Assembly (NCBI GenBank): GCA_946902875.1
Contig: OX336349.1
Span: 10,129,891-10,193,890, forward strand
From: Nematopogon swammerdamellus
Lineage: Eukaryota > Arthropoda > Insecta > Lepidoptera > Adelidae
DNA: 64,000 nucleotides
Direction of reading: 5' to 3'
The notes below the pieces were generated by a model. That model was not told the DNA's origin, made no database searches, and saw only the letters and a program-made list of their open reading frames with translations. Numbering within the stretch: the first letter of the stretch is position 1; each line of letters opens with the position of its first letter. A program made the translations under genes and the position numbers. Below, one piece after another: positions 16,314 to 58,734 of this stretch.

Positions 16314-16610
16314 ACCCCCGACGAAAAAAACGGAGGGGTGTTATAAGTTTGACGTGTGTGTGTGTGTGTGTGTGTGTCTGTCTGTGGCATCATAGCTCCC
16401 AAACGGATGAACCGATTTGAATGCGGTTTTTTTATTAGGAAGCTTGTTTAATCAAAATGGTTCTTAGCTATGTTTGTAATCAAGTAATCATGTAATCAAG
16501 TAATTAAGTAATAAAAAAATGTCTTATCTTCAAAAGTGGACCGATTTTCATGCGGTTTTTAAAGCTTTTTTAAAAAAAAACGCATGAAAATCGGTGCACT
16601 TTTGAAGATT
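16314..16610 (+). repeat. dispersed CCCCCGACG repeat, copy 2, ending in an inverted repeat
   Basis: Same order as 8779: ACCCCCGACG, a (GT) run at 16352-16384, CATAGCTCCCAAACGGATG and ACCGATTTGAATGCGG. At the 3' end, TCTTCAAAAGTGGACCGATT (16528) faces its inverted copy at 16578-16607, making a hairpin with about 35-base arms. Confidence 0.8.
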
Positions 16611-26955: not shown

Positions 26956-27111
26956 CCCGAGCCACTCGTAACTTAACCCTTAATTAACTTAAGGTTACAT
27001 TTTAAATAATAAAAATAAATCTGTCGCTTTTCGAGATCTGACGCGAGTTTAACATTTTTTACCCACCTAAAAAAGTGCCAAGCGCCACTAAAGAAGTTTT
27101 CACTTCAAAAT

Positions 27112-27184
27112 ATCGAACCCTAGAGTTGAAGGCGGTGCTAAAGCAAGCAAGAATAACCGACCGCCTTCAACTCTAGGGTTCGAT
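27112..27184. repeat. short fold-back related to 12974-13344
   Basis: 25-base perfect arms at 27112-27136 and 27160-27184 (ATCGAACCCTAGAGTTGAAG...) enclose GCTAAAGCAAGCAAGAATAACCG. It is the inner part of the larger palindrome. Confidence 0.8.
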
Positions 27185-27219
27185 TTTTTTTATTTCATAC
27201 ATTTTTGAAGGCGGTTTTT

Positions 27220-27300
27220 ATATTTTTTTATATTGAAAGCGCGACATGTGGCTCCGAGCCACCCATAAGGTGTCTAACGACGTCCATGGATATAAGCTCC
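27220..27300 (+). repeat. dispersed ATTGAAAGCGCGACATGTGG repeat, copy 5
   Basis: GAGCCACCCATAAGGTGTC, TAACGACGTCCATGGATA; truncated at the right. Confidence 0.8.
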
Positions 27301-32313: not shown

Positions 32314-32889
32314 CTAACAAACATTAAAATAACTATCAAAAGGGGCATTTTCAAATGTTCCTAGAACACTTGCTGCATTACCCCGCTGGATGGCAAGGCT
32401 TACCCTTTGAATGAAGTAGGCCCTTGATTGCGGGACGCCAGTAGCGTCCACCAGCAGAGGCCCAAGCCTCTTCAAGAAGCTTTTGGCTTCACTGCTCCAC
32501 GGACCGAGGGTTTCAACCGCAAACGCAACAAATTCGAAATCTTGAATAATATTTGAATATTTGTTGCGTTTGAGGGTCTCCGCTCCGGCCGCGGCCGCGC
32601 CAGCCGCTCTTGAAGAGGCCCGAACGTGACTTGGAGCCAATGTGTCGACACAAGTGGCGTCCCACATCAATGACCTACCCTTAGCCCATGGCACCAGGGT
32701 GATACCATCGGGCCTCTTGCCATCCAGCCGGGAATAACCGCAAGGTTCTAGGATGCACGGTATGTTTGCTGTCAGAAGCGTGGACTTTATAATAAAATTT
32801 AAATTTTGATGCCTGGAGTTTCTACCTGCACTTTTGATACATGATAGTCCGTGGTGGCCATATATGTCGACTGGTGACCCACATATCAT
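32314..32889 (-). pseudogene. C-terminal domain of a reverse transcriptase polyprotein, copy 3
   Basis: 191 codons open on the minus strand. It starts with a Cys/His cluster (CGSPVDIYGHHGLSC, a zinc-binding pattern), then SRLDGKRPDG and LMWDATCVDTLAPSHV. The order RPDG...WDATCVD matches a PD-(D/E)XK-like nuclease core that I associate with the C-terminus of some animal reverse transcriptase ORFs. It ends with LAIQRGNAASVLGT. Upstream there is an immediate stop and AT-rich sequence, so the reverse transcriptase itself is missing: a 5'-truncated retrotransposon. Nuclease activity is inference. Confidence 0.75.
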
Positions 32890-34489: not shown

Positions 34490-35288
34490 GCTGTATGGAG
34501 TCCACACAAATTACCAACCTAGCAGTCTACTGTGCCAGTGGTGGGTCACACTAAAGTAGAGCTCAGCAAGTCCGACATTTACGTCCTCGTCGTGCTCCCT
34601 GGGCAATGTTGCGACGATGCCTTTGGCATTACCACCGTCCTAGAGTCGCAGCAGCTAAGGAATGTCGGACGCCAGGCGACCATCCTGCGCCTAAACAGGA
34701 TCTATTTTTCAGCTTCACTATGTGGTAGACAGGTCCTCCACCATGTCGTCCGGGTTGGTACCACAGGTCGCAGGCGAAAAACTCCTGATGTGGCTCTGCT
34801 GCACTTGGAGGTCAGCCTGCGACTAGCCGGTCGGTGGACTTGAGTGTATCGGGGATGTCCTGGGTTGTGGATGCTAGTGTCGCTTGCACTCCAGACTCCT
34901 ATTAACCGACTGACAGCCGCAGGGGTCAGGGAGAGCCGGTGGAAACAGGTGACCGCTGCCTGCCTGCGTGGTAGTACAGGGGCCCGGCACACGGTCCTCA
35001 CCAACCCGTGTGTTGGCTGCCCTATCAACACGCGAAAATCCCTGTCAGAGAGCATTGTGGGGCTGGTGACCATGGGAGACCACATGTTTTCCTGGAATAG
35101 GGGGCCCGGGGGTCCTCTCGTTCTCTGCGACTGTCAGTTAGTTGAGTCTATTCGAGTTGCACAAGGCATCACCGCGCCCTGGACACATTCTGATACGCTT
35201 CATGAATCAAACCCATCCAAATCAATGAGCCGAACCAAAAATAGAAAAGTTTGTAAACCTTCAGCGGCCGGTCTCCCTCAAAATGTAA

Positions 35289-35446
35289 AGTAGACCTCGC
35301 AAATATAAGAGGTCTACATACGAATTTCTCCTCCGTCGCCTGCTATCTGCAGACGGCGAGGCCTCACCTCCTCTTTCTTACGGAGACCCAGATCGGGCGT
35401 CCTGCGGACACATCCTACCTGGACGTTCCTGGTTACAATCTTCAGG
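35289..35446 (+). pseudogene. N-terminal endonuclease fragment of the split retrotransposon ORF2
   Basis: One open frame carries NIRGLHTN, LTETQ and PGYNLQE, the first conserved blocks of the APE endonuclease (Asn and catalytic-region Glu). It continues in frame at 45629 if the Polinton-like element and one AACGTT are removed (junction CAGGAACGTTTCATGG). The frame was therefore still readable at this point when the insertion took place. Confidence 0.85.
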
Positions 35447-35452
35447 AACGTT
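35447..35452 (+). repeat. target site duplication AACGTT, left
   Basis: Identical to 45623-45628. Six base pairs is the duplication length made by Polinton/retroviral-type integrases. Confidence 0.9.
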
Positions 35453-35620
35453 AGTAGTGTAGAATTGGGCTATCTAATTCACCTCGACAAACATCATGCC
35501 GTTCAGTCTAACTCGCATCGCTTCGCTCATGCTCATTATCCTTTACAGCAAGATGTTTCTGCCGAGGTGAATTAGATAACCCAATTCTACTGTATCGCTG
35601 CGGGCAACTATGCTGATTAT
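35453..35620 (+). repeat. left terminal inverted repeat, palindromic
   Basis: It matches the right end over AGTAGTGTA, AATTGGGCT, ATTCACCTCG, AAACATC and TCGC(A/AT)TCGCTTCGCTCAT. Internally it is a palindrome: 35460-35486 pairs with 35563-35589 at 26 of 27 positions, around a 76-base centre. The outer nine bases lie outside the palindrome. Beyond 35590 similarity to the other end is patchy (ACTGAATGCCGATG is shared). Confidence 0.88.
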
Positions 35621-35935
35621 TTGAATGACGTCGAGGTTAAATTCTGTTAACTTCAAATCGATAAAACTCAATTTACCTGCTGATATTCATGTATTGATTA
35701 GACTGAATGCCGATGAGCTGCATATGGCGATTATAAATGTTTGCAATTTTTTTTTTTAGAGACGCTGTAAGTAAGGCATGCATGCTTTATAAAATATTGT
35801 ATGCAATATTTTTTTATATTCTAAGTATTTCAAGCAATTCTCGCTTTGTCTAAAGCCCACCCGCCCGTGGAGCACTATTAAATTTCATGTAATGAATCTC
35901 TTTATCGTTTGCATGCGAGCTATTGTACATACATA
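35590..35935. other. subterminal non-coding region of the element
   Basis: No frame is supported. ACTGAATGCCGATG (35701-35714) recurs inverted near the right end (45388-45410), marking an extended but diverged inverted repeat. Confidence 0.5.
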
Positions 35936-36300
35936 CTCAAATTGCGACATCAAAATCAAGCAGGAAATTCATCAAGCCCTCCACAACCAGACTATATTAT
36001 GAAATCTTACCTATTTCCCAGCTCAGCCCCGGCGAGGTTACATAATAAGCCGGATCGAGCTTGTAATGTTTTAAGCTCATATTCCTAAAGTTTTCAAATA
36101 TATCGCACAATAACAGAACATCGCTTTTTAAGTAAAGATCTGTATATTGACCCAAACTTTAAACTCTAAATTGTCTCCAAACATTTACAGCATGCTCATA
36201 ATCGCTTTGCGATATATCAGCCGAAGTGAGCGCGTTGTAAAAACTATCTTTTAACGGTAACTCGATTTCATCCAAGAGTTAATCAATCATTACATCGCTT
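35936..36300 (-). pseudogene. remnant of protein-primed DNA polymerase B
   Basis: The minus strand reads IELPLKDSFYNALTSADISQ, DLYLKSDVLLLCDIFENFR and LDPAYYVTSPGLSWE in one frame. This is the conserved block of type-B protein-primed polymerases of Polintons, adintoviruses and bidnaviruses (DLYLK-DVLLL then APGLSWD). Stops interrupt it at the base following RQFRV (near 36138), after GKIS (near 36000) and before LLDEIEL (near 36281). The SLYPS and DTDS catalytic regions are absent. Of a gene usually over 1,000 codons, about 120 codons remain. It cannot supply replication. Confidence 0.85.
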
Positions 36301-36529
36301 AAAAACATGAGACAGAGCTCCAAGTTTAAACATGCATGAAATTTTTACAAGTATTTGAAATTGTGATGCTTAAAAATTGGAAAACAGACGGGAATTGATC
36401 AAGTGTTTTATTTGAAATTTCAAAGTATTTTTTCAATTTAAAACAGTGCAAAGGGTCTGAGAATAACAAGTAAAAATTGCCCTAGTTATGAAGAGATAAA
36501 ACTTACCAGTCGAGTTCCTTGAGTCTCGG

Positions 36530-36650
36530 CGAAGGCGGGGGGCAGGCACTTACTTGTTCACTTTCCACTTTTCACTAGGCACTTGTACTTACTGCTTACT
36601 GCTCAACTGAATGATGCCCGGTACTAGCGCGACGTCAAATTTATACAAAA
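36530..36650 (-). promoter_or_regulatory. minus-strand TATA promoter with leader and splice donor
   Basis: TATAAA at 36645-36640 on the minus strand is followed about 30-37 bases on by CATTCAGTT, an arthropod initiator-like sequence. A strong donor (ACTG|GTAAGT) lies near 36513. It points toward the polymerase remnant, so it may be the old polymerase promoter. Inference from motifs only. Confidence 0.45.
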
Positions 36651-37325
36651 ACAAATGCATAAAGCCAGATTCACATAGGGACTGAAATCTTACAGTGAAT
36701 ACAATGTTTGTATGCAACGATCCACCCGTGTTCCATATTTCATCATCAAAACCGAGTGTGAGCATGTCTTACAGAATAATGCAATCAGGCGAATCAGCAT
36801 TTTCACGGGAATTGAAATAATATTGCTTCGCAGGCGGTTGTACAAAGCGAGGCGCTGTGACGCGCCGAGTGAAATTCGAAGCTTCAATGCCCGGCGGCGG
36901 TGTTAATTCGTAAAAATACATCTATGCGACCGCTCTATATGAAATTTTAGGGTTCCGCGCATTAAAAGGAATAAAGGAGTGCTTACAAAAAACACCTGCC
37001 TGCCTGTATGCCTGTCTGTCAATAAAAAAAAAAAAACTGTAGGGATACTGCATGCGGTATGCGCATATATGCATGTTATTGCACATATGTATGTTGGCTG
37101 GGAAAAATTGACTGAGGCGGTAAACCCATCCTCGCCTCATATTAAGCGGTGTAAAGCGTATTATTATATTATTAATATTATGTAAATACAAAATTATTCT
37201 CGTAATATGACTACTTTACTTGCAAATGAGAATAGATTTATGCATAATCTTTTTTTTTTTTTTACTTGAATTTAAATAGTAAATTTGCTGGGGAAATTAA
37301 AACTCAAGAAGTAGCTTACATATAC
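36651..37325. other. non-coding interior with a fragment of a dispersed repeat
   Basis: 36945-37035 (AGGGTTCCGCGCATTAAAAG, CTGTCTGTC) resembles the start of the GGTTCCG repeat family at 54923, an insertion inside the element. Frames at 36690-36906 and 36922-37191 have no motif. Confidence 0.45.
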
Positions 37326-37407
37326 ATTTATTTATTCTTTAAATTTCATGTTTAATGTATTTATAAAAATAAAAATAAACAATAAACCTTACGATATTAT
37401 GCTAACA

Positions 37408-37986
37408 CTACAGTGTGGAAAATGTGCATTCTCGGGATATCTTTCTTAAAATATTTTGAGTTAAATCCATAATTTCATTATAACCGCTTTCAACAACCAC
37501 GTACTGAGACTGCACTGTTAGAACTTCAGAAGCTTCGCTCCCTACTAAATCATACATCTGAATTTTTATTAGATGGTGTCCCCGAGCCTGCTGCGGTGTT
37601 ATTATGTATGATGACGGCTGTTGTTTAACGGCAGCTTGCATATTCCTTTTTCCCCGTCCTTGACTAGTGGACTGGCTCGCATTTTTGAAAACGCCTGTTT
37701 CGTCTATCCCATGACTCTTGAGACGTCCGGCGCTCCGCTCGTTTTTTAAAATATCATTATAAGTTTGAAGTATGAGAGGTTTTGAACTTGCATCGCGATA
37801 TGTCATGGCTTCCTGATCGCGAATCTGAAAAAAAAACAATTAAACATTATTTTATGTAATGCTGATTTGATGTAATGCTGGAAAACATGAAATAGTTATT
37901 ATTTATTTATTTATTTATTCTTCCTTTATCACCATAGTGAAACATGGAAATAGTTGTTATTATTATAATATGAGGCTTACCGACAT
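37408..37986 (-). CDS. two-exon gene of unknown function, divergent from the ATPase
   Basis: Exon 1 is only ATGTCG (37986-37981), followed by GTAAGC. The intron is 37980-37825 (156 bases) and ends in a long pyrimidine tract and CAG. Exon 2 (37824-37408) continues in phase for 138 codons to a stop, giving about 140 residues. AATAAA lies on the minus strand at 37336-37327. The protein has a polar N-terminal half (TYRDASSKPLILQTYNDILK), a Gln/Ser/Arg-rich linker, and a C-terminal half with HHLIKIQMYDLVGSEASEVL and a predicted helix. I do not recognise it. It may be an accessory gene of the element or captured host sequence. The splice model is read from the sequence, not tested. Confidence 0.55.
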
Positions 37987-38099
37987 GATGCAGGCGTGCG
38001 AAGTATTCGAAATGTAAAGCTGAAGTGCCTCGAGAGCGGAGGGATTCGCATCGCTGCAGCCGTGAAATTAAATTTCATCAATATTTCAAGTAAAACCTG

Positions 38100-38300
38100 T
38101 TCTAACATGTTTTTTTTTTCATCGAGTAGCACCTGCAGATACATGTGCGAGCTTGCTAGACACGTTCCGCTGAAATCATTGCAGATGTCGCAACATGATT
38201 TTTTTTCTTTTTCATCGATTAGTACCTACAGTGGTGTGCACGAGCTTTCTAGACACGCATCGCTGAAAGCATTGCGGATGTCAAATTCGCGCATAGTAAA
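38100..38300. repeat. two degenerate copies of a 90-bp unit in the divergent promoter region
   Basis: AACATG plus a T-run and CATCGA(G/T)TAG(C/T)ACCT(G/A)CAG starts at about 38105 and 38192. Each continues GCGAGCTTGCTAGACACG / CACGAGCTTTCTAGACACG and GCTGAAA(T/G)CATTGC(A/G)GATGTC. It lies between the divergent spliced gene and the ATPase. Confidence 0.75.
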
Positions 38301-38378
38301 GCGTTAATTAGGCATACACCCCTTTTTTAGATTATATTGCATGTAAAACTTTTTGTTTTTTTTCATACAGCCGGAATT

Positions 38379-38430
38379 TATAAAAGGGGGTGGCTTTGCT
38401 GAAGATAATCATATATGTGCATTCAGCAGC
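38379..38430 (+). promoter_or_regulatory. TATA promoter of the ATPase gene
   Basis: TATAAAAGGGGG at 38379, with initiator-like TCATAT about 31 bases downstream and CATTCAGC a little further on. The ATPase ATG is at 38464. Identification is by motif and spacing. Confidence 0.5.
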
Positions 38431-38463
38431 TGAGTAAGGAATTATATTAGGAGTATAGCGGTC

Positions 38464-39156
38464 ATGAAATTTGTAAAACAACCTATATTATTAGATTTAA
38501 ATTTCGCTTATCGCTGCGGTGAAAGTGAAAATTCAGGGCCGAGGCATTGCAGTCTTCTACCGAATAGTATAAGATCTTTAGTATGCGGAGCCAGTAATTC
38601 CGGGAAAACAAACCTGATTTTAGCACTCTTATTACACGAGAATGGGTTAAAATATAGAAACATTTATCTTTACTCAAAAACAATATTCCAACCGAAATAC
38701 CTTTTCCTTAGCAAAGTTTTCGATAATATACCTGAAGTAAGATTTGAAAAATTTAATGATAATGAAAAAGTTATATCACTCCTGGAAACATTGCCGGATT
38801 CCATTTTTATTTTTGACGATATTGCGTGTGAAAAGCAGAATAATATTCGCGATTTCTTTTCGATGGGAAGACATGCATTTATCGACTGTTTTTACTTGAC
38901 TCAAACATACTCGAAGATACCGAAGCAGCTTGTGAGGGATAATGCTAATTTAATTATACTTTTTCGGCAGGATGATGTAAATCTGAAACATGTTTACGAT
39001 GAGCATGTTAATAGCGATATGTCGTTTAATGATTTCCGTCATATTGCGGCGAGAATTTGGAGCGAGCCCTATAATTTCTTGGTAATTAATAAGGACTGCG
39101 AAAAGAGTAATGGGCGGTATAGAAAAAATTTTGATGAATATCTTTCCAGCGAATAA
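38464..39156 (+). CDS. FtsK/HerA-type genome packaging ATPase
   Basis: 230 residues. Walker A GASNSGKTN at about 42-50 and Walker B SIFIFDDIA at about 111-119 are both present, followed by an RQDD/arginine-finger-like region (LIILFRQDD). Length and motif order match the compact packaging ATPases of Polintons, adintoviruses and related viruses (A32-like family). Such proteins pump DNA into the empty capsid. It starts at the first ATG, 85 bases after a TATA box. First gene of the plus-strand cluster. The frame is intact with all catalytic residues, so purifying selection acted until recently. Confidence 0.92.
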   Translation: MKFVKQPILLDLNFAYRCGESENSGPRHCSLLPNSIRSLVCGASNSGKTNLILALLLHENGLKYRNIYLYSKTIFQPKYLFLSKVFDNIPEVRFEKFNDNEKVISLLETLPDSIFIFDDIACEKQNNIRDFFSMGRHAFIDCFYLTQTYSKIPKQLVRDNANLIILFRQDDVNLKHVYDEHVNSDMSFNDFRHIAARIWSEPYNFLVINKDCEKSNGRYRKNFDEYLSSE

Positions 39157-39250
39157 AATCTTTAAAATGTCTCGAGGGAAGAGTCAAAGCTCATTAATAC
39201 TTAAATTTTACTGGTAATAGGTTGTCTTTTAATTTTTTATAACAATTATC

Positions 39251-40201
39251 ATGATAAATATTAATAAAAACAAATCCATCAAAGAGGAAATTATAAAATC
39301 TGTACAAGCGGTTAAGAAAAAAGTTAGTGAAATGCGGGAAAATAAAATGCATGACGAGAAAGTGATGGAAGACATGTTCCAGCCAATTATTCAACCGCTG
39401 AAAAAAATTGCTGACCGCTCCGCGAATGCAAACTCAGGTCGGGAATTTGAACACTCTCAGGAAATTCATGATGACGATCAATTGAGCAACAAATTCGACT
39501 CGCATAACCATAGCAATATTAGCGATGGTGCCGAGTTAGATTCGGAGGAGGAAAAAGATGTTGAGATATTCGAATCTCCTAATACAACTTTCATCCGCCA
39601 ATCATCGGCTTCTTCGCTAGAATCAGGAAGCGGCGACGCGGGCGCTAATAGACCTCGTCTTACAGATATGATAAAACTGGATGTCCCCTTCGGTGTGAGA
39701 GTAGACAGAGGAAAAACAATGATAGGTAAAAACCCTGTTAGAATAGAAAACGATGAGATTACGCTGGCAGGTTTTAAATACAAATTATCGCCTGGTTTAA
39801 GAGAGTTATTATTCAAGAAAAGTCCAAATTTAAGCAAAATAACAACAGCGGACAAAATTAAGTATAAAGAAATTTTGTTAGAAACTAGCGTGCATAAACG
39901 AAATTATGATCCCACTAAACCTGTAAAGAGTAATAAAGGTATTAAATATCGGTATATAATAAAACCACTGCTAAATTTGGATCGGAAGACGGATGGCGAT
40001 GGCTATACATCAGGAAATGGTCTGCCTAGTATGAAAATGTTGAAGAAAAATACCTCCTATGTTTACTGGGATGATCCGAATGAATTAGTCGACCGCCTCC
40101 GTTTGCTAATCGCATCGCGGGATGCAGGAAATACAGGCCTCGATAATGAGATTATATCTATTTTAGAAGAGTTAAAAGAATGCGGCGTTATTAATGTATA
40201 A
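39251..40201 (+). CDS. DUF8207-like protein of unknown role
   Basis: 316 residues. The N-terminal third is charged and predicted helical (Lys/Glu-rich), followed by an acidic Ser-rich linker (residues 85-130). The C-terminal half has PFGVRVDRGKTMIGKNPVRI, LSPGLRELLFKKSPNL and KPVKSNKGIKYRYIIKPLL. I recall this conserved region as the DUF8207 family, found next to capsid and integrase genes in insect and cnidarian elements. The function is unknown. A structural or DNA-binding role is possible given the basic C-terminal half. The start ATG at 39251 follows the ATPase stop by 94 bases. Confidence 0.75.
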   Translation: MININKNKSIKEEIIKSVQAVKKKVSEMRENKMHDEKVMEDMFQPIIQPLKKIADRSANANSGREFEHSQEIHDDDQLSNKFDSHNHSNISDGAELDSEEEKDVEIFESPNTTFIRQSSASSLESGSGDAGANRPRLTDMIKLDVPFGVRVDRGKTMIGKNPVRIENDEITLAGFKYKLSPGLRELLFKKSPNLSKITTADKIKYKEILLETSVHKRNYDPTKPVKSNKGIKYRYIIKPLLNLDRKTDGDGYTSGNGLPSMKMLKKNTSYVYWDDPNELVDRLRLLIASRDAGNTGLDNEIISILEELKECGVINV

Positions 40202-40219
40202 AATGTGGTGTTGATGGTT

Positions 40220-40255
40220 TATACGCTCAGTAACATTCAAACTTTCGCAGCAATT
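40220..40255 (+). promoter_or_regulatory. candidate TATA promoter before the 116-residue ORF
   Basis: TTTATACGCTCAG at 40218, with GCAGCAATT about 30 bases further, directly after the stop of the preceding gene. Weak. Confidence 0.35.
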
Positions 40256-40274
40256 ATTTCCGAGGCTTGCTAAA

Positions 40275-40625
40275 ATGAATATTGATAAATTCGGCCAGCA
40301 TGTGCACAAAAGACTTAGGCTTTCTGAGCTTCAACGTGATCATATAGATTCATGCTTCCATAGAACTGGAGATGGCAATATTGATGCACGATCATCGAGA
40401 TTGACAGGGCTTCTGCCCCCGAAAGAATCAAATGATGCTGTTACAAAATCTTATATCGATAACCTCCTTAAGGAATTTTGCAGCAAAAAACAGTTAAGCG
40501 ATAGCTTTCATCGATTTCAAGCTGATATAAAACACGATATTGAATTGCTACAATCTCATTTCGAGCGAAAGATCTATACTAAAGCAGACGTTCATAGCCT
40601 TGAAGGAGAAAATAAATCTTCATAA
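40275..40625 (+). CDS. small protein with fibre-like motif and C-terminal coiled coil
   Basis: 116 residues. The central block LTGLLPPKESNDAVTKSYID resembles the repeat that joins phage tail-fibre segments (LTGL-P---DAVTK-YVD pattern). The last 45 residues are charged and predicted helical, likely coiled coil. The stop overlaps the integrase start in TAATG. I infer a possible capsid-attached fibre or trimerising adaptor, by analogy only. A regulatory role is equally possible. Confidence 0.6.
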   Translation: MNIDKFGQHVHKRLRLSELQRDHIDSCFHRTGDGNIDARSSRLTGLLPPKESNDAVTKSYIDNLLKEFCSKKQLSDSFHRFQADIKHDIELLQSHFERKIYTKADVHSLEGENKSS

Positions 40626-41551
40626 TGGAGGCTGTTGTCGAAGAAATTCATAAACCCGCTCGTAGAAATTTTCCGAGGCGAATAGTAGAGCTTCGAGGCA
40701 TAGACGATTTATGGCAAGCAGATCTGGCTGAGATGAGAAGTTTTCAACGGTATAACAGAGGATATAAATTAATACTAGTTGTAATTGACGGATTTTCGAA
40801 ATTCGCATGGGCAGTTCCTGTGAAGACAAAAAATAAGGAGGATATTTGTAATGCGATGGAGGTAATTTTAAAAAAGGGGAGAAAACCCGCACACCTGCAG
40901 ACCGATCACGGGAAAGAATTTTACAATGAAAAATTTAAAAAATTTATGGTGAAAAAATCTATTAATCATTATTCAACATATTCTATCAAGAAAGCTTCGA
41001 TCGTTGAACGTTTTATAAGAACGCTAAAAACCCGATTGTATAAAACATTCAGTTTAAATGGTAACTATAAATGGGTTGGAAAACCACTTGCAAATATAAT
41101 GACTAATTACAATAATACAGTGCACAGCACCACGCGTTTTAAACCTGCAAATGTGAGCAATTATAACGCGGCTGCTGTTCATGCAAATATTGAAAAAAGT
41201 AGAAAAAAATATGCAAACGCGCTGCTACCCCCGAAATTTAAAATAGGTGATCATGTCCGTATAAGCAAATACAAAGGAGCTTTTGCCAAGGGATATAATC
41301 CGAATTGGTCAACTGAACTGTTTAAAATAGCTAAAATAAAAACAGTGAGGCCTGCCTCGTATATATTAAGCGATATGCACGGCCAAATTATATCAGGATG
41401 TTTTTATGAGCAAGAACTGATGAAAACAAGATATCCAGATATTTACCTGGTTGAAAAAGTTTTAAAAAGAAATGGGGAAAAAGTGTTTGTAAAATGGCTG
41501 GGTCTTCCCGCGTCTGAAAATAGCTGGATAGATGCTGATAACAAGGTATAA
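40625..41551 (+). CDS. retroviral-type integrase with chromodomain-like tail
   Basis: 308 residues. The rve core has DDE residues at D33 (QADLAEM), D94 (LQTDHGKEF) and E128 (ASIVERFIRT). The C-terminal part has an SH3-like barrel region (KIGDHVRISKYKGAF...YNPNWSTELFKI), and the tail YLVEKVLKRNGEKVFVKWLG resembles a chromodomain. This is the standard Polinton/adintovirus integrase layout. It cuts and joins element ends into host DNA and explains the 6-bp AACGTT duplication. It begins at ATG 40625, overlapping the previous stop by one base. No lesions are seen. Confidence 0.95.
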   Translation: MEAVVEEIHKPARRNFPRRIVELRGIDDLWQADLAEMRSFQRYNRGYKLILVVIDGFSKFAWAVPVKTKNKEDICNAMEVILKKGRKPAHLQTDHGKEFYNEKFKKFMVKKSINHYSTYSIKKASIVERFIRTLKTRLYKTFSLNGNYKWVGKPLANIMTNYNNTVHSTTRFKPANVSNYNAAAVHANIEKSRKKYANALLPPKFKIGDHVRISKYKGAFAKGYNPNWSTELFKIAKIKTVRPASYILSDMHGQIISGCFYEQELMKTRYPDIYLVEKVLKRNGEKVFVKWLGLPASENSWIDADNKV

Positions 41552-41556
41552 TTAGT

Positions 41557-41595
41557 TATAAAAACTTGAAACGCTTGCTAAAACGTTCATTTGAT
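41557..41595 (+). promoter_or_regulatory. TATA/initiator of the PLA2 gene
   Basis: TATAAAA at 41557 and TTCATTT with its A at 41589, 32 bases apart, immediately after the integrase stop at 41551. The ATG follows at 41604. The spacing is that of an arthropod core promoter. Confidence 0.55.
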
Positions 41596-41603
41596 ATTAA
41601 GTG

Positions 41604-42344
41604 ATGAAAGGGGAGGGAATAGTCGATACATTGATAAATAATTTACCTTTTGAAATTCATCTGCCTGGCTATAATTATTGCGGTCCGGGGACGCGTTTAA
41701 ATAAAAGACTGCAGCGAGGTGATACGGGGGTTAATCAATTGGACGATTACTGTCGAGAACACGATATAGAATATATGAAATCAAAAAATTTGGGCGTTAG
41801 ACGTATAGCTGATTTAAAATTGATGGATAGAGCGGGGAAACGTTCAAAGTGTGCTGATGCAGGGAGAGGAGAAAAAATCGCTTCATGGCTGGTGAAAAAT
41901 ATTATGAAGGCGAAAGTGAAAGCGGGGGCCGGTGTAAAGAAAAAAATAAAAACGTTTAAGACAGCGATAAAAAAAATTAAGACTAAATTAGGAAAAATTA
42001 AATCCAAAAGCAATAAAACGGTTATTCGTCGGGCGCTTGCTTTTGCAAAAAAGATTATTCCGAGGAATGCATGCATTTCATTGCCTAGAGTAATACCAAT
42101 TCCAAAAACAGGTGGTATATTACCGCTTATACCAATTTTTGCAGGCCTATCTGCTTTAGGCAGCTTGGCTGGAGGGGCTGCTGGAATCGCTAAAGCCGTG
42201 AATGATTACAAAATAGCTAGAGAAGATTTGAAAGAAGCACATCGTCATAATAGCGCCATGGAATCAATCGCTATAGGACATGGTTTATATCTCAAACATT
42301 ATAAAAATGGAGCTGGATTATTTTTTAATGGTTCAAAAAACTGA
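41604..42344 (+). CDS. phospholipase A2 / pX-like minor capsid protein
   Basis: 246 residues from ATG 41604. Residues 22-57 carry a parvovirus-type phospholipase A2: calcium loop YCGPGT (25-30) and catalytic REHDIEY with H53 and D54. A long Lys-rich segment (about 90-140) follows, then a hydrophobic Gly/Ala segment ILPLIPIFAGLSALGSLAGG (about 170-190), and the C-terminal motif GLYLKHYKNGAGLFF. The hydrophobic segment and C-terminal motif match pX/pVI-like minor core proteins of adintoviruses. In parvoviruses this activity breaches the endosome during entry; here it is inferred. The coding frame has no stops. The catalytic pair is intact. Confidence 0.85.
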   Translation: MKGEGIVDTLINNLPFEIHLPGYNYCGPGTRLNKRLQRGDTGVNQLDDYCREHDIEYMKSKNLGVRRIADLKLMDRAGKRSKCADAGRGEKIASWLVKNIMKAKVKAGAGVKKKIKTFKTAIKKIKTKLGKIKSKSNKTVIRRALAFAKKIIPRNACISLPRVIPIPKTGGILPLIPIFAGLSALGSLAGGAAGIAKAVNDYKIAREDLKEAHRHNSAMESIAIGHGLYLKHYKNGAGLFFNGSKN

Positions 42345-42712
42345 TCAAAAGGCTGCCTAGAAGAGCGCTTACAAATATAGATATCTTGGAACATGCTCAG
42401 GATATACCGCACTTTAGAAATGTGTACATGAGGGATGCCCTGCCTCATAAGCCTAAAAAAATTGAGTGCGGTGTTCTTAATTTGGATAGCAATAAAAACC
42501 ATGGAACTCACTGGGTGGCCTATGCTAAAATAAATAATTATGCTGAATATTTCGATAGTTTTGGAAATTTACAGCCACCGCTAGAATTAATACAGTATTT
42601 AAAAACGTGTAAAATTTATTATAACTATAAAAAATATCAAAAAGATCATGCTAAAAATTGCGGTCATCTGTGTGTCAAATTCCTCCGCAAATTTTGGGAA
42701 ATACATTTATAA
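42329..42712 (+). CDS. adenain-like virion protease, start disturbed
   Basis: Cysteine protease of adenovirus type (C5/Ulp1 fold). Catalytic His in GTHW (codon 42509), acidic residue in EYFDSFG (42554) and catalytic Cys in NCGHLC (42659) are in the right order, as is the usual IECGVLNLD before the His. It cleaves capsid precursors. The frame is open from 42329, but the only nearby ATG upstream, at 42328, is out of frame by one base across a run of six A. The first in-frame ATG is 42428, which would delete about 33 N-terminal residues. I read this as a one-base insertion in the A-run. It overlaps the end of the preceding gene. Confidence 0.82.
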   Translation, partial: WFKKLIKRLPRRALTNIDILEHAQDIPHFRNVYMRDALPHKPKKIECGVLNLDSNKNHGTHWVAYAKINNYAEYFDSFGNLQPPLELIQYLKTCKIYYNYKKYQKDHAKNCGHLCVKFLRKFWEIHL

Positions 42713-42740
42713 TGCAGACGTTAGTAAAACGCATTCATTT
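42708..42740 (+). promoter_or_regulatory. TATA/initiator of the penton-like gene
   Basis: TTATAATG at 42707, overlapping the protease stop at 42710-42712, and GCATTCATTT with its A at 42737, about 29 bases apart. The penton ATG is at 42746. Confidence 0.5.
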
Positions 42741-42745
42741 CGAAA

Positions 42746-43439
42746 ATGTCTTTCACTCTGTCAATTCACGGCACCGATTCCCTCTTAACCAGCAATTATT
42801 TGCCTGCACTTGAACTGAACGGAGAATACGAGTGTGGATTGCTCTATTTTGCAACATTTAATTCTATTCCGAATGTTGACTATAAAAATAACAAATTTCA
42901 TTTTAACGATAGTGATGTCTTAGAAATTCCCGAAGGCTCTTACGAGCTGCAAGATATAAGCGAATTCCTGAAAAATAATTTAATTAATAAATGTAATATT
43001 AATATTACATCCAATAATAACACTTTGAAGTGCAGCATCAACTGTTCGAAAGATGTTCACTTTGAGAAGCCAAATTCAATAGTTTCTCTGCTCGGGTTCC
43101 CCCGAGAGATGCTGAAAGCAAATATAACTCATGAATCGACTCAAACGATCGCCATTCTACCTACAGCAGTCATAAGAATCGAATGCGATATTGTGAATGG
43201 CTCTTTTATAAACGGGAAACCATCGCATATAATTCACGAATTTATTCCTAATTCACCTCCAGGTTACAGGATTTTAGAAAAACCTGAAAATATTATCTAC
43301 TTCCCCGTCAATCAGCAAACAATATCAGCAATAACCATAAGAATACTCGACGGAGTATTCTTATGGTTGGAATAGTTTAGTTAATCTTCGCAAGGAAGAT
43401 ATACATATGTGTCTGCATTTAAGAAAAAAATCATGCTAG
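42746..43439 (+). CDS. penton-like minor capsid protein, frameshifted near its C-terminus
   Basis: The open frame runs to 43375 (209 residues). MSFTLSIHGTDSLLTSNYLP, ELNGEYECGLLYFATFNSIP and LQDISEFLKNNL match the N-terminal half of Polinton/adintovirus penton-like proteins (single jelly roll). The final stretch GVFLWLE is not family-like. Expected C-terminal residues (SLVNLRKEDIHMCLHLRKK) appear in another frame from 43374 to the stop at 43437-43439. The break coincides with a perfect 16-bp inverted repeat at 43333-43368. The gene is therefore a near-complete but broken copy. Confidence 0.82.
43333..43368. repeat. perfect 16-bp palindrome at the penton lesion
   Basis: AACCATAAGAATACTC (43333-43348) and its exact inverse (43353-43368) with loop GACG. 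The second arm is out of keeping with the surrounding protein sequence and coincides with the frame break, so it is probably a template-switch scar. Confidence 0.85.
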
Positions 43440-43573
43440 TGTTCAATAAATTAGCACCTCCCCCTAAACAATGTGCCAGTAACAGACGCATCGCTCGGCA
43501 AGAACGACGCGTGATTAAATTAACAAAAGAGAATAAACAATTTTTACGGTTAATCGGATTAATACAAAAATGA
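43433..43573 (+). CDS. 46-residue basic ORF overlapping the major capsid start
   Basis: Starts ATG 43433 and ends in TGA 43571-43573, sharing ATGA with the major capsid ATG. The product is basic and starts MLVFNKLAPPPKQCAS. The C-terminal part is LTKENKQFLRLIGLIQK. It overlaps the penton terminus by seven bases, typical of packed viral genes. I recall small ORFs with a similar LT-EN--FL--LG ending at this position in related elements but cannot confirm conservation. Confidence 0.55.
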   Translation: MLVFNKLAPPPKQCASNRRIARQERRVIKLTKENKQFLRLIGLIQK

Positions 43574-44781
43574 GCATTTTCGATGTAACAGCATTGCCCG
43601 AGCAAGATGATTCTATAGAAAGCTTTGAAATTCATTCCTATAAGCCCTATGTCAATAGTTTCAGTAACAACGATGAGATTAGAATACCGATAAACCAGCA
43701 AGATTTGTATGTACTACCATCAGAAAGTTCCCTGTACATGGAGGGTGTATTTCGTGCGTACAAATCGAATGCTGATAATAAAACTGAGAAATTGCCTAAT
43801 ATGCATTTAATCAACAATTCCATTTTATTTTTATTTCAAGACATACGATATGAGCTTAATGGTGTTGAAATAGATAAAATAAAAAACGCTGGTATAACAA
43901 CAACTATGAAATCATACATTTCGATGAATGAAAATGAGTCGAAAATGGCTGGAGCATGGGGATGGTATACAGATGGTGTTAATAGCGATGGAAATTTTAC
44001 CGTTAACATCCCCCTCAATAGAATTCTAGGCTTTGCAGAGGATTTCAAAAAAATTATAGTTAACTGCAAACATGAGCTTGTGCTTTTGAGAAGTAGCAGC
44101 AACGTGAATTCCTTAAAACTGAATCAAGGTGAATTTATTTCGGAAGTATTTATTTCAAAAATAATTTGGAGAATGCCTCACGTTAAAGTGTCAGATCGCA
44201 TGCGTTTAAATTTACTCAGGCACCTGGAAAAAGATGAATCATTAAAAATTGCTTTTAGAAACTGGGATTTATATGAGTACCCTCTTCTACCTAGAACAAC
44301 CAAACACACATGGTCTATTAAAACATCGAATCAGTTAGAAAAGCCTAGATTTGTTGTCTTAGGTCTTCAAACGAATCGCAAAAATTCTCAAGGAAACATG
44401 TCCGAATTTGATCATTGTAATTTGATTGATGTTAAAGTCTTTTTAAATTCTACTTATTACCCGTATGACCTCCTCTCCATAAAATTTAATGAGTCGAAGT
44501 ATGCTTTATTATACGAGTTATACTGCAAGTTTCAACAGTCTTACTACGGCCGTCAGCCGAGCTCGTTGCTAAGTTTAACCGATTTTAAAACAAAAGCACC
44601 ACTTTTCGTAATAGACTGTTCTCATCAAAACGAGACTGTGAAAGCTGGGGTAATTGACGTTCGACTGGAAATTCAGAGCCAGCAGGAAATACCTGACAAA
44701 ACAGCAGCTTACTGTCTTATAATTAACGACTGTTTAATAGAATATAAGCCTCTAAGCAGTATTGTGAGGAAACTAACATAA
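43570..44781 (+). CDS. double jelly-roll major capsid protein
   Basis: 403 residues, intact. The start MSIFDVTALPEQDDSIESFE is family-like. Internal blocks match the hexon-like major capsid protein of Polintons: ILFLFQDIRYELNGVEIDKI, the linker region SYISMNENESKM, WSIKTSNQLEKPRFVVLGLQ and the last strand YCLIINDCLIEYKP. It forms the trimeric capsomers of the icosahedral shell. The stop overlaps the next start (TAATG). No lesions are seen, so the shell gene is intact beside a dead polymerase. Confidence 0.9.
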   Translation: MSIFDVTALPEQDDSIESFEIHSYKPYVNSFSNNDEIRIPINQQDLYVLPSESSLYMEGVFRAYKSNADNKTEKLPNMHLINNSILFLFQDIRYELNGVEIDKIKNAGITTTMKSYISMNENESKMAGAWGWYTDGVNSDGNFTVNIPLNRILGFAEDFKKIIVNCKHELVLLRSSSNVNSLKLNQGEFISEVFISKIIWRMPHVKVSDRMRLNLLRHLEKDESLKIAFRNWDLYEYPLLPRTTKHTWSIKTSNQLEKPRFVVLGLQTNRKNSQGNMSEFDHCNLIDVKVFLNSTYYPYDLLSIKFNESKYALLYELYCKFQQSYYGRQPSSLLSLTDFKTKAPLFVIDCSHQNETVKAGVIDVRLEIQSQQEIPDKTAAYCLIINDCLIEYKPLSSIVRKLT

Positions 44782-45263
44782 TGGCTCAACCTATCATAGT
44801 GGACGTTCAAGGATTTAAAACTTCTGAGAACAAATTTATTCTCAAAGAACTAGCGATGCTTGCAGACACGAATACACAAGTTTTTGTTCTAAAAGCACCA
44901 TTTCCCTATGAGAAATTAAGCATTGAAGAAAGAAGACAAGTCAATTGGCTGCAACGAAATCGGGAAATTTCCTGGGGCGGGGGTTTCATGCATATGTATG
45001 AATTTAATAAAATTGTTAAACCGTATTTTAGCGATAAAAAAATTTATTGTAAAGGTGAAGAAAAAGTGGCATGGATAATACAATTACTTGGAAATGAAAA
45101 TGTAATAAATCTAGAAAGCTTGAATTGTCCTAATTTTAAGATTTTAGAAGAAAAGTATTGTGATGAGCCATACTATTATAATTGTATAAGTCATAAGAAA
45201 TGTTGTGCTTTGAAAAATGTAATATGTCTAAAGAAGTGGTGTGATGAAAATATAATTTTTTAA
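44781..45263 (+). CDS. 160-residue protein of unknown function
   Basis: Open and intact, starting at the TAATG shared with the capsid gene. N-terminal strand PIIVDVQGF and LKELAML, then VFVLKAPFPYEKLSIEERRQ, NWLQRNREISWGGGF, and a Cys-rich C-terminus (FKILEEKYCDEPYYYNC, HKKCCALKNVICLKKWC). Position and intactness imply a conserved accessory role. IVDVQGF at the N-terminus could be the first strand of an RNase H-like fold, but this is speculative. The Cys cluster may bind zinc. Confidence 0.7.
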   Translation: MAQPIIVDVQGFKTSENKFILKELAMLADTNTQVFVLKAPFPYEKLSIEERRQVNWLQRNREISWGGGFMHMYEFNKIVKPYFSDKKIYCKGEEKVAWIIQLLGNENVINLESLNCPNFKILEEKYCDEPYYYNCISHKKCCALKNVICLKKWCDENIIF

Positions 45264-45268
45264 ATAAA
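45263..45268 (+). terminator. polyadenylation signal AATAAA
   Basis: AATAAA starts at the last base of the stop codon of the final gene, the likely shared 3' end of the plus-strand transcripts. Confidence 0.6.
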
Positions 45269-45269
45269 A

Positions 45270-45482
45270 GGTTTAAAATTCGATCGCATTTATTACTTGG
45301 TTTTTTCATTCTTCGGTATAGCCATCGTATCTTCATATCGATTGCTGTGAAAACTGTAATCTATTTAGCACCTAAACATTACCATTCTGCCATCGGCATT
45401 CAGTTTACCGATCAAAAAGCGATTTTAACGCTCAAAGAGCTCTGCAATGCAAACGATCTGCACCTGCATCGCAGACGTAGTT
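45270..45482. other. right subterminal non-coding region
   Basis: No frame is supported. CATCGGCATTCAGTTTA (45391) matches the inverse of the left subterminal, and GCGATTTTAACGC is a small inverted repeat. Confidence 0.5.
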
Positions 45483-45622
45483 TATAATTGGGCTGTTTGA
45501 TTTCACCTCGACAGACAGATCGAGCTGTTTGAATCATGAGTATGAGCGAAGCGAATGCGATTATGATTGAGCAGCTCGATGTTTCTGACGAGGTGAATCA
45601 AACAGCCCAATTATACACTACT
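45483..45622 (-). repeat. right terminal inverted repeat, palindromic
   Basis: 45483-45510 pairs with 45589-45615, apart from one extra base. A second stem inside, ATCGAGCTG...CAGCTCGAT (45519 and 45572), and a GAGCGAAGCGAATGCG centre complete the structure. The outermost bases ACACTACT match the left end. Confidence 0.88.
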
Positions 45623-45628
45623 AACGTT
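45623..45628 (+). repeat. target site duplication AACGTT, right
   Basis: Identical to 35447-35452. Confidence 0.9.
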
Positions 45629-48064
45629 TCATGGCGAAGGGTGGTGTCTGCTTGTATGTTGGATCTGGTGTCTCCTATACCCGGCTCACCCGATTTGAGG
45701 ATCCTGCTTTCCCTGTGCTATGGATCCGCGTGAATCTTCCCCATGTGGTGAGGATTTACGCGGGTGCATACAGATCCCCTAACCTCAGTGCGTCAAGAAC
45801 AGAGGCATTTTGCTAGCATCTCAGCAGTACGGCAGACAAATTGCTTTGCGAGTTCCCTACGGCGGAGTTAGTGATGCTGGGTGATTTCAATGCTAAACAC
45901 CAAGACTGGTTGGGCTCCCCCATCACTGACCATGCCGGCAGGGGGACTTACAACTTGGCCATAATTGCACACGGGTTGACGCAGTTGGTGTCCGGAACCA
46001 CTCGGATACCTGATAACCCTGCTCATCGACCTAGTTTGCTGGACCTTGTGCTGACTAGCGAGCCAAATGATTACAAGGTGAGGGTTGAAGCTCCCCTCGG
46101 TAACTCCGACCATTGCCTTGTAGGCTCAACCGTGCCAACTGTACACCTAGCGGAAGCGCGTGAATGTAGTACGCGAACAGTTTGGCACTACCGGTCAGCA
46201 CTTCCGTTCATGACTTCCGTTCCTTCTTGGGAGCATACCCTTGGCACGACGTTTGCTTCTCTTCTCCAGACCCATCCCTGTGTGCCCAATCGGTCGTCGA
46301 TGTGATCGCACAGGGTATGAATTTCTTCATCCCTACCTCCGCCGTTCCCATCGGCGGCGACGACCTGGGCGCCAACCCCCCTTCATTGCCCCATTGCGGG
46401 CGTATGATGGATAATATTAGGTTCCATTCCAGAGTCGTCTATAAAACGCTACCTGAGTTGGATATTTCGAAGAGTAGCGGGCCTGACGGCGTCCCGGCGG
46501 TTGTCTTGAAAAATTGTGCTCTGGAATTGGCGCCAGTCCTTACTCGCCTATTCAAACGCTCCTATTCCTCCGGTTCAATGCCTTCTTGCTGGAAAAGAGC
46601 TTCGGTCCAGCCGGTCCCCAAGAAGGGGGACCCAGCAAACCCATCGAACTATCGCCCTATTGCGTTAACCTCACTCTTGAGTAAGGTTATGGAGCGTATT
46701 GTCAACTCAGCGCTCCTGACGTACCTAGAAGACTATAAACTCCTCGACGATAAGCAATACGGCTTCCGCAAGCAAAGGTCGACTGGAGGTCTTCTAGCGT
46801 ACGTCACACATTTGTAGGCTGAAAGGTTCGATGGTTTTAGGGAATCGCTGGCGGTCGCTCTGGATAATTATGTCCAAAGGATTATTGCGCCGCCGGGCAC
46901 CGGGAAATAATAAGCAAGCTTCCGGCCTACGGTGTCCCTACAAAATGTGCACTTGGATCTCCAGCTTTTTGAGCGATCGGTCGATCTTTGTCACCCTTGA
47001 TGGTGCATGCTCGGCCGATTACTCAATCAATGCTGGTGTTCCACAAGGATCCGTGCTGTCGCCTGCGCTGTTTCTATTATTTATTAACGACATGCTCTCG
47101 CTCGGCGAAATACATTGCTACGCGGACGACAGCACGGTGCACGAAGGGTTCATCAAAGACTGGAAGGGTAGAGAGGCGTCAGCAGCAAACGCGAGACGCG
47201 AAACTGTTGCTCGGGTTGACCTGGTTCTCGATAAAGTATCCTCATGGGGGAAGGAGAACTTGGTCAACTTCAACGTAGCTAAGACGCAAGCCTGTTCTCT
47301 ACTAAGGCTGATCCGTTTCCACTCCAATTAACTTTCCAGGGCAGCCAAGTCCCCAATGATGGTAGTCTGGGCGTCCTGAGTATGGAGGTGTCAAGGGACG
47401 TTGGATTTCGATCGTTCATAGAATCCAAGGCGAAACTAGCATCTCGAAAATTAGGGATACTCTACCGATGTAGGCGATTTTTCACGCCGGTCCAATTGCT
47501 TACACTCTATAAAGCACAAGTAAGACCGGTGATGGAATATTGCAGTCATCTTTGGGAGGGTTCCCCTGAGTACCTTCTTTCAGCCTTGGATTCTATCCAA
47601 CGACGAGCCATTCGCCTCATTGGCGACTCGTACTCACAAAGAACCTTCAACCTCTAAAGCTATAAAACGTATCGTTGGGTCATTGAGCCCGTTTTATCGG
47701 TACTACTATGGCCGCTGCTCTGATGAAATTGCTTCCCTTATCCCTCTTCCTCCTGTTCGCTTTCGCCAAACCCGCCATACTCTCGCGGAACACCCCTTTG
47801 TAGTGGACAGACGAGTACTTCGAACGGCACGATTCTCTAAATCGTTCTTGTGCCGCACTGCAAAGGTGTGGAACGGGCTTCCGGGGAATATCTTTCCCCA
47901 CTCCTACAATCCACGGATCTTCAAATCGCGGGTAAATAGCCTTTCCCCAGCAACATTAGTCCACCTCCAAGCCGGACTGGCACCTCCTCGGGGGTGATAT
48001 TGGCTGCCCCTGAGGCTTCGACCTCGGACACAGCCAGCTAGTTCGGAAACAATAAAAAAAAAAA
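45629..48064 (+). pseudogene. right half of the split non-LTR retrotransposon (endonuclease and reverse transcriptase)
   Basis: It resumes the endonuclease at 45631 with MAKGGVCLYVGSG, then LGDFNAKHQDWLG (45880) and SDHCLVGSTVP (46106). Frames shift after 46230 and about 200 codons between the endonuclease and reverse transcriptase seem deleted (46370-46460). The reverse transcriptase keeps SSGPDGVPAVVLK, NYRPIALTSLLSK, QYGFRKQRST, then GVPQGSVLSPALF (47035) and the YADD box (47119). Further breaks lie at 46817, 46831-46920 and 47330. The end is AFFLCRTAKVWNGLP-like sequence (47850-47900) to 47997 and an A-run at 48052-48063. It was dead long before or after the insertion; several breaks are independent of it. 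Confidence 0.85.
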
Positions 48065-51050: not shown

Positions 51051-51769
51051 TCTAGTACGCTAGTACATAATATATCTTTGCCTACGAGTAACTCTAAGTA
51101 AGTAAGATTTTTCTTCTGAGAGTCATAAAACTAATCTAAAAGTAGTTTGTGTCAGCTGTTCAGAGAATACTGCTGAACTTAATTACATAGGTAGAGCTTC
51201 CAATTATTTTTTCTTTTAAAGACAAACCCCACAAAACCGTGCTAAACTACAAGTAAAATTAACAACTCTCTCAATATTTACTTAACTTCCGTCTTCGCGG
51301 CTGAAGTTGTCTGATAGGAAACTTTGTCTTTTACCACTAATTGCATATGCACCAACCCCACTAATTACCTACCCGAGATAATTGCACATCCCTTGTCCCT
51401 ACTAGAATAAAAAGACACCCCTTCCTCAGATCGTACAGACGAAATACTATGGTGAGTCTATTACAACTCCCTTTGTTCTTTAGTGACTATATTTACCTAC
51501 GTTCCACAAAACCTATTTTATCATTAACCATTATATTGTAACTGTAATTTATTTTAATTATGGTTTTAACTAAACAAGCAAAAATTTTTTCAAATATTTT
51601 GATCCTGCAAATGGTTAAACTGAGTGTACGTTAAAATTAATATATAGGAAAAAAACGTTGAAAATACGTTTCTTGTATGGGGACTTTCTTACTTTTTCAC
51701 TTTTTCAATGTTTTACTATTTTATTGTTATAGCCGCCAAAATAACACATATTCTGTGAAAACCCGCTAG
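51051..51769. other. no feature recognised
   Basis: AT-rich intergenic sequence. Confidence 0.4.
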
Positions 51770-51925
51770 CTATTACGGTTCCAAAGGCTGTACCTTTGGA
51801 ACCGTAATAGCTAGCGGACGGACTGACAGACGGACGGGCGGACAAACAGACAGACATACAGACGGACAGACAAACGTTGCAGGCTTAGCAATTGTAAGGC
51901 TTCCGTACGGGGTACGGAACCAAAA
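51770..51925 (-). repeat. GGTTTCCGTACC repeat, minus-strand fragment
   Basis: It reads inward to the end CTTCCGTACGGGGTACGGAA with many (A)CAGACGGAC units. GCTATTACGGTTCCAAAGG (51768) and CCTTTGGAACCGTAATAGC (51794) form a perfect hairpin at the other end. Confidence 0.75.
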
Positions 51926-57532: not shown

Positions 57533-58734
57533 AAAACAACCAAACATCATTTTATTATTGGGAAATTGTACAGATTCGTCATGATCAAAATCAATCTTCT
57601 AGTGCCAGGTTTTCGAATCAGCCTCCATACCTGTGTTACCGGACGCTATCTTGCGGGCGCGGCGCGGGCGCAAAGCGGCAAGATCTACACAACGGCAAAG
57701 CGCCAAGATTTACACAATATTTCTAGATTTTTTTTGTGTGAAACCTAAATGAATAACATATACTTTCGAAATTAACATTAAAAATAAACATGCCATTCGT
57801 TTTATGTCGTTTTTTTTTTCATCACTAACGACTTAGACCGAGTCTAATTTACTGCCTTTACGTAATAAAATATTCATGGTTGCTAATAAAAAAGTTAGAT
57901 CCTGTATAGTGTTTCACTGACACCTTGATAGTTTATTAATAGTAATCAAGAAAAGAAATATGAACTCCCTCTCGCATTATTATGTTTATGTATACATAAT
58001 ACATTTACTCGTACATAGGTACTAGATACTTTAATTTATTGTCTAGTAATTTTTTTTATTTTCAAAACAATGTCTAATTTTTTATCAATGCACTGATAAC
58101 TTTGTTTTCGCCGAAATAATAACGTGACTAAACTTTCACTCCCGAAATTGCGTCTTCAAACGATACGTAAACGGGTCTAACAGTTTCCACTTGCACCTTG
58201 TGGATAGAGACTGCAGTAATACTGCTTGATTGCCCAGCGGATTGTGGCGTCATTTCAATTGCGAGCTCCGGAAATCCACTTTCAGCTTAAAAACCGCAAC
58301 ATTCAAGAGAAGGATCCATCTCTTTACGTACGGCTGGACTGTGCATCCATAATTACTGCTCTGTGCTGGCTCGTCGACGTCGGCGCCGCGGCGGCTTGCA
58401 GCCAGGCGCAGCCGCCGCGCCGGCGGCAGCGGCGCGCAATCATTGCATTTACCGCCCCAATTATCATGCGGGCCACAGCGAGTGCCGGAACACCGTTCCG
58501 TTACCCAACAGAGTTGAATAAAACGCGATGTGGGCACATTCTGGTCTTGCGAAAATATACCGAATGTAACCCTAATTTAGTCCTTGACAACTCGCCCCAC
58601 GTACACACATACTTACAACACAGGAATATTAGACAATTTATGTATTCCCTGTTTTTATTTAATTTTTTTGCATGCTTTTTTAGTACATAGAAGTTAACTA
58701 ACACTTATAAAACATATACATTTTATAATTTTTA
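57533..58734. other. no gene recognised; GC-rich patch 58375-58440
   Basis: The patch (GGCGCCGCGGCGGCTTGCAG) may be a promoter remnant. Overlapping frames 58226-58690 on both strands reflect composition. Confidence 0.35.

What the first reader, a model, noticed from the sequence alone, without database searches (positions are those of the whole stretch)
35453..45622. Complete Polinton/adintovirus-class element with exact boundaries, nested in a retrotransposon
Sequence alone gives the ends (AGTAGTGTA... and inverse), the 6-bp duplication AACGTT, and an in-frame empty site: CAGGAACGTTTCATGG rejoins the interrupted endonuclease. Capsid, protease, packaging ATPase, integrase and a PLA2/pX gene are all present. 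A 10-kb capsid-bearing transposon with defined ends in a lepidopteran-like genome is a strong candidate for the previously undescribed system.
Basis: partly seen in the sequence, partly recalled or inferred. Interest (0 to 1): 0.92.

Follow-up and report, generated by a model that had tools for sequence, protein, structure and literature searches.

The report
Polymerase-less Maverick/adintovirus copy in moth-like DNA
A ten-kilobase virus-like transposon of a kind already described from moths appears to sit inside a retrotransposon; its ends and capsid genes are well preserved but it has lost nearly all of its DNA polymerase gene, so it is best read as a defective copy rather than a new system.

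Summary
The boundaries are right: 35453-45622 is flanked by a 6-bp duplication (AACGTT) and by about 140-bp inverted repeats starting AGTAGT and ending ACTACT, the Maverick end motif quoted in PMC8097293. Inside lie, in one tandem series, an A32-type ATPase, ORF2, a small extra ORF, an rve integrase with weak chromodomain match, a PLA2 protein, an adenain-like protease (weak match), ORF6, a double-jelly-roll capsid protein (61-67% identical to the named lepidopteran relatives, one called "hexon, Spodoptera moth adintovirus 1") and ORF8. This is the gene list, with similar sizes, tabulated for Sf Maverick 1 and 2 in 2018 (PMC5803895), so the kind is known. The protease frame lacks an ATG before its conserved part. 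Best reading: a defective, PolB-deleted integrated Maverick/adintovirus (Eupolintoviridae-type) copy, mobile only if a helper supplies polymerase. Less expected: each terminal repeat folds on itself into a long hairpin; but the window holds other hairpins of similar strength, and no sister copy was available. Copy number and sister ends are untested: the whole-genome search did not complete.

The parts
35447..35452 (.). left copy of the 6-bp target site duplication AACGTT
35453..35595 (+). left terminal inverted repeat; folds on itself as a hairpin
36015..36269 (-). remnant of the DNA polymerase B gene, about 85 codons with one in-frame stop
   Evidence: weak, E 0.034; E 4.9e-16
37408..37839 (-). 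open frame of 143 codons with TTG start, no meaningful match; may not be a gene
   Evidence: (one row, E 1.7)
38464..39156 (+). packaging ATPase, Pox_A32 family
   Evidence: 2e-07
39251..40201 (+). ORF2-like protein, 316 aa, no significant family match; position and size as Sf Maverick ORF2 (305 aa)
40275..40625 (+). small ORF, 116 aa, weak match to T7 tail fibre N-terminal domain (E 0.00048, 20.3 bits, cut-off 25.2); not among the ORFs tabulated for Sf Mavericks
40625..41551 (+). rve integrase with C-terminal chromodomain-like part; D33, D94, E128 invariant in 13 of 13 aligned
41604..42344 (+). phospholipase A2 protein (CAP of Sf Maverick)
   Evidence: (2e-12)
42329..42712 (+). adenain-like protease frame; no ATG before the conserved part
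   Evidence: (0.005)
42746..43375 (+). ORF6, 209 aa, candidate penton by position only; fold prediction failed (pLDDT 31.6)
43570..44781 (+). double jelly-roll major capsid protein, 403 aa
   Evidence: (4.6e-110)
44781..45263 (+). ORF8-like protein, 160 aa, no family match
45475..45622 (-). right terminal inverted repeat; folds on itself as a hairpin
45623..45628 (.). right copy of the target site duplication AACGTT
35257..35452 (+). left flank: probable N-terminal part of a non-LTR retrotransposon endonuclease (recognised from recall only)
   Evidence: no library match
45629..47331 (+). right flank: frame-shifted remains of the endonuclease and reverse transcriptase of a non-LTR retrotransposon

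Best explanation
It is an integrated copy of a lepidopteran-type Maverick/Polinton (adintovirus, family now Eupolintoviridae) that has lost most of its polymerase gene. Shown by sequence: a 10,170-bp insertion with 6-bp TSD and Maverick ends, and open frames for ATPase, integrase, PLA2, capsid, three ORFs without significant family match and one small ORF with a weak one. Inferred: a full-length ancestor inserted into an old non-LTR retrotransposon by its own integrase and later lost polB, or the already deleted form was moved by integrase in trans. Protein-primed replication needs PolB (established for Polintons), so this copy should not replicate alone. It could at most be copied or packaged with a helper's polymerase, and the protease frame may also be impaired.
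For: Ends and TSD; gene set; agreement in order and approximate size with the table of Sf Maverick 1/2; PolB remnant: 36 of 36 scored candidates at E at most 0.001, best 4.9e-16, and an in-frame stop in the extended match; no PolB match in nine other open stretches of the left part; no other copy of the ends (E up to 0.1) or of the nine proteins (E up to 0.01) elsewhere in the window.
Against: Eight of the nine tandem frames (not the protease) run from an ATG to a stop without interruption, more than expected of an old fossil, so the copy may be recent or kept under selection. The stretch 36270-38463 is unexplained and could hold an N-terminal part of PolB too divergent to see, since only short PolB pieces and one Pfam model were available as probes.
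Confidence: 0.87

Rival explanations
1. It is a non-autonomous but still mobile family: a satellite Maverick that keeps integrase, capsid and ends, lives without PolB, and is multiplied by the polymerase of full-length relatives in the same genome.
For: Ends, TSD and eight of nine frames are intact; integrase catalytic residues intact; only the polymerase is clearly lost.
Against: No sister copy could be looked for (genome search did not complete). The left and right ends are only 76.6% identical, which does not suggest recent joint copying. A single copy with a degraded remnant is equally explained by one deletion after insertion.
Confidence: 0.15
2. The fragment is a stray PolB pseudogene, and another replication protein is or was encoded in the unexplained left 2 kb.
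For: A 143-codon minus-strand frame without meaningful match lies there.
Against: The fragment lies inside the ends and matches PolB fragments at 55-76% identity; no replication family matched in the left part apart from it; no frame of 150 codons or more there.
Confidence: 0.05
3. Assembly artefact: the element or its deletion was made by misjoining.
For: None found; not tested with reads.
Against: Exact TSD at both ends and a flank junction in frame.
Confidence: 0.03

Closest known systems
Sf Maverick 1 and 2, Spodoptera frugiperda cells (KY042018, KY042019; PMC5803895)
   Different: Those have a PolB of about 1162 aa; here only a remnant, on the minus strand to the left of ATP. ORF6 is 209 aa here, 148 in their table. 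One small extra ORF lies between ORF2 and INT. 'Inverted repeat' occurs 0 times in the paper's main text, so ends cannot be compared; its figure was not seen.
Adintoviridae, renamed Eupolintoviridae (PMC12451622 passages); 'Spodoptera moth adintovirus 1'
   Same: Hexon 63% identical to the named protein; rve integrase with C-terminal chromodomain-like part.
   Different: PMC11071296 defines adintoviruses by a distinctive PolB plus hexon (passages); PolB is not met here.
Vertebrate Mavericks (PMC8097293)
   Same: 6-bp TSD and (AGT)2//(ACT)2 end motif (passages).
   Different: The 134 called intact encode eight (or seven) conserved ORFs with TIRs and TSDs; its section heading says the vast majority are degraded, as this one.
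Parvoviruses (terminal hairpins) and Bidnaviridae
   Same: Each end can fold back on itself, as parvovirus ends do; PLA2 domain.
   Different: No NS1 or parvovirus capsid match in the Pfam scans. Bidnavirus ends are said not to form hairpins (PMC4061559 passage).

Membership tests
[quoted passage not shown]
Polinton/Maverick transposon | end motif such as (AGT)2//(ACT)2 | tested here: met
   (motif as quoted for vertebrate Mavericks)
Polinton/Maverick transposon | rve integrase with catalytic triad | tested here: met
Polinton/Maverick transposon | protein-primed DNA polymerase B | tested here: not met
   remnant only
Polinton/Maverick transposon | A32-type packaging ATPase | tested here: met
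Polinton/Maverick transposon | adenovirus-type cysteine protease | tested here: inconclusive
   17.0 bits against cut-off 21.3; no ATG before conserved part
Adintoviridae/Eupolintoviridae | hexon recognisable by plain protein search | tested here: met
   the 50 fold-search rows shown (of 1293) are capsid entries of viruses known, from recall, to have double-jelly-roll capsids (model pLDDT 59.6, TM 0.2-0.32)
Adintoviridae/Eupolintoviridae | integrase with C-terminal chromodomain | tested here: inconclusive
   chromodomain E 0.0003, 21.1 bits, below curated cut-off 25.1; C-terminal part conserved in 13 of 13, 2 of those 12 relatives carry precomputed PF00385 (P0217 only among those chosen is certain; most rows list rve alone)
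Adintoviridae/Eupolintoviridae | PolB with N-terminal OTU-like domain | tested here: not met
Adintoviridae/Eupolintoviridae | penton (minor capsid) protein | tested here: inconclusive
   ORF6 by position only; model unusable
Parvovirus-like element | NS1 helicase/nickase or parvovirus VP | tested here: not met
   no such Pfam match; only the PLA2 domain is shared

The most novel reading that the evidence does not exclude
A polymerase-less satellite Maverick whose two terminal repeats work as hairpins: each end is a long palindrome, and in four stem positions both arms of one end share a base that differs from the other end, as if each end were copied from itself (hairpin-primed, parvovirus-like) rather than only from the opposite end. 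It would use its own integrase and capsid but a helper's or the host's polymerase.
Probability: 0.08. Interest if true: 0.65.

Novelty: new member of a known kind. Interest (0 to 1): 0.27.

Why it matters
As a defective copy of a known class it adds one well-bounded example from a moth-like genome, useful for annotation and for deciding how Maverick copies die: the polymerase goes while ends, integrase and capsid stay open. If the hairpin ends prove general in moth Mavericks, that would raise a testable question about how their ends are replicated.

Tried and rejected
Viral contigs: four scans gave no confirmed relative; genome contigs: one scan, none; phage records: none. Hence no nucleotide relative of the element was available, and no dN/dS or dating was done.

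ORF6 as penton: no significant library match and an unusable model. The 143-codon minus-strand frame: no meaningful match. Rfam and tRNA scans of the window: nothing. Left part of the element (35600-38463) and the stretch before the right repeat against the rest of the window: no blastn match at E up to 1e-3. Capsid against solved structures by sequence: only chance-level rows.

Considered and rejected: parvovirus/bidnavirus origin on the strength of PLA2 and hairpins (no parvovirus replication or capsid gene found). Hairpin strength as such is not rare here: among 2554 overlapping windows of 150 nt the best window of the right end ranks second and that of the left end nineteenth; six other places (near 13.1, 16.5, 27.1, 32.4, 51.7 and 58.3 kb) fold better than the left end, one of them better than the right.

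Covariation between arms is weak: of 79 columns 6 are end-specific, 4 arm-specific, 0 crossed, 37 invariant, 21 other (mostly one arm differing) and 11 gapped; over the first 45 columns the left arms agree at 31 of 37, the right arms at 36 of 39, but the two outer arms also at 32 of 37. No significance test was made.
Full report
Observation. The span 35453-45622 (10,170 bp) is bounded by AACGTT on both sides. Its ends are inverted repeats: 43 nt at 88% without gaps including the duplication, and about 140 nt with gaps, 76.6% over 141 columns. The tips read AGTAGT...ACTACT, which is the (AGT)2//(ACT)2 motif quoted for vertebrate Mavericks in PMC8097293 (passages seen).

Genes. Pfam finds an A32 ATPase (2e-07), rve integrase (2.1e-12) with a weak chromodomain match (0.0003, below cut-off), a PLA2 domain (2e-12), a weak adenovirus protease match (0.005, below cut-off) and a double-jelly-roll capsid domain (4.6e-110). 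The capsid search gave 1770 proteins at E at most 0.001, the best 120 listed at 60-67% identity; most have no name, and the named organisms among them are Loxostege, Ostrinia, Helicoverpa, Spodoptera and Chrysodeixis, including 'hexon, Spodoptera moth adintovirus 1'. The lepidopteran host is an inference from these names. The integrase search gave 5259 proteins, 120 listed; in an alignment of 13 (12 of the 120, chosen by me, plus the window) the residues D33, D94 and E128 are invariant; that these are the catalytic triad is from recall and from the match to solved retroviral integrases (17 rows). The capsid model, made with 14 of the 120 relatives, has modest confidence (pLDDT 59.6); the 50 rows shown of 1293 in its fold search are viral capsid entries such as Sputnik, mavirus, PBCV-1 and PRD1, with TM-scores of only about 0.2-0.3.

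Not complete. Sf Maverick 1 and 2 carry a PolB of about 1162 aa (PMC5803895, section 11 part 1 of 2 read). Here a 53-aa open piece at 36000-36158 on the minus strand matches PolB fragments: 36 of 36 scored candidates at E at most 0.001, best 4.9e-16, identity 55-76%, three with the precomputed domain PF03175. Pfam alone is weak (0.034). With those fragments as queries the match extends to about 36269 across an in-frame stop, about 85 codons in all; one query gave a heavily gapped extension to 36338 that I do not count. Nine other open stretches of the left part had no PolB match at E up to 10 (HMMER's filters drop most weak matches). There is no room for PolB on the right, where 211 bp separate ORF8 from the right repeat. 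So the polymerase gene is mostly deleted and its remnant interrupted. The protease frame has no ATG ahead of its conserved part; whether it is broken or starts otherwise is open.

Known kind. The table for Sf Mavericks lists ATP, ORF2, INT, CAP, PRO, ORF6, ORF7, ORF8 as small ORFs, the text says the eight are in tandem and in the same order in both lineages, with POLB on the same or the opposite strand, and that CAP is the fourth; the figure was not seen. The window has the same series with one extra small ORF between ORF2 and INT, and an ORF6 longer than theirs (209 against 148 aa). PMC11071296 (passages) defines adintoviruses by PolB and hexon and mentions genomes that pair adenovirus-class virion proteins with no recognisable PolB and integrase; the present element differs in keeping the integrase. 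PMC12451622 (passages) reports the renaming of Adintoviridae to Eupolintoviridae. Because PolB is a defining feature and is not met, I file this as a defective derivative of that family and not as a working member.

Insertion site. The right flank matches endonuclease and reverse transcriptase models and another RT protein of the window. The join of the flanks is open in one frame across the junction. The left half has no library support and the left flank no tblastn match to that RT protein; the alignment of the joined peptide to it, though continuous across the junction, is reached by 52 of 500 shuffles. Nesting in one retrotransposon is therefore likely, not proven; no second copy of the flanking retrotransposon lies in the window at blastn E up to 1e-4.

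Terminal hairpins. Each end folds on itself: -34.5 kcal/mol, z -8.96 on the left and -49.2, z -12.58 on the right, with 0 of 200 shuffles as good in both. Four stem positions and two others differ between ends but agree between the two arms of the same end. This would fit ends that are maintained as hairpins, but six other places in the window fold better than the left end, the arm comparison is not decisive, and I had no other element. After the literature searches I looked into nine papers. 'Hairpin' was looked for in seven: 0 occurrences in PMC11071296, PMC8097293 and PMC8363768; one each in PMC4061559 (bidnaviruses lack them) and PMC12747079 (giant viruses); two in PMC6431247 (Helitrons); one in PMC11071308 whose passage was not shown. 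It was not looked for in PMC5803895 and PMC12451622. The original adintovirus paper is not held, so I make no claim that hairpin ends are unprinted.

Limits. No genome-wide search was answered, so copy number, sister ends and empty sites in other copies are untested. Transcription and particle formation cannot be judged from sequence.

Noticed in passing
window 481-3459 (+): A long open frame of 992 codons with endonuclease and reverse transcriptase domains: a nearly intact non-LTR retrotransposon ORF.
   Followed up: partly
window 13076-13225, 16476-16675, 27051-27250, 32426-32625, 51676-51900, 58276-58550: Strong self-complementary stretches that fold better than the left end of the element; possibly MITE-like repeats.
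   Followed up: no
window 37408-37839 (-): 143-codon open frame inside the element on the strand opposite to the capsid genes, no meaningful match in Pfam, NCBIfam or solved structures.
   Followed up: partly
window 40275-40625 (+): 116-aa ORF directly before the integrase with a weak match to the N-terminal domain of T7 tail fibre (E 0.00048, below cut-off), not among the ORFs tabulated for Sf Mavericks.
   Followed up: partly
window 38110-38282: 1.9 copies of a 93-bp tandem repeat just upstream of the ATPase gene.
   Followed up: no
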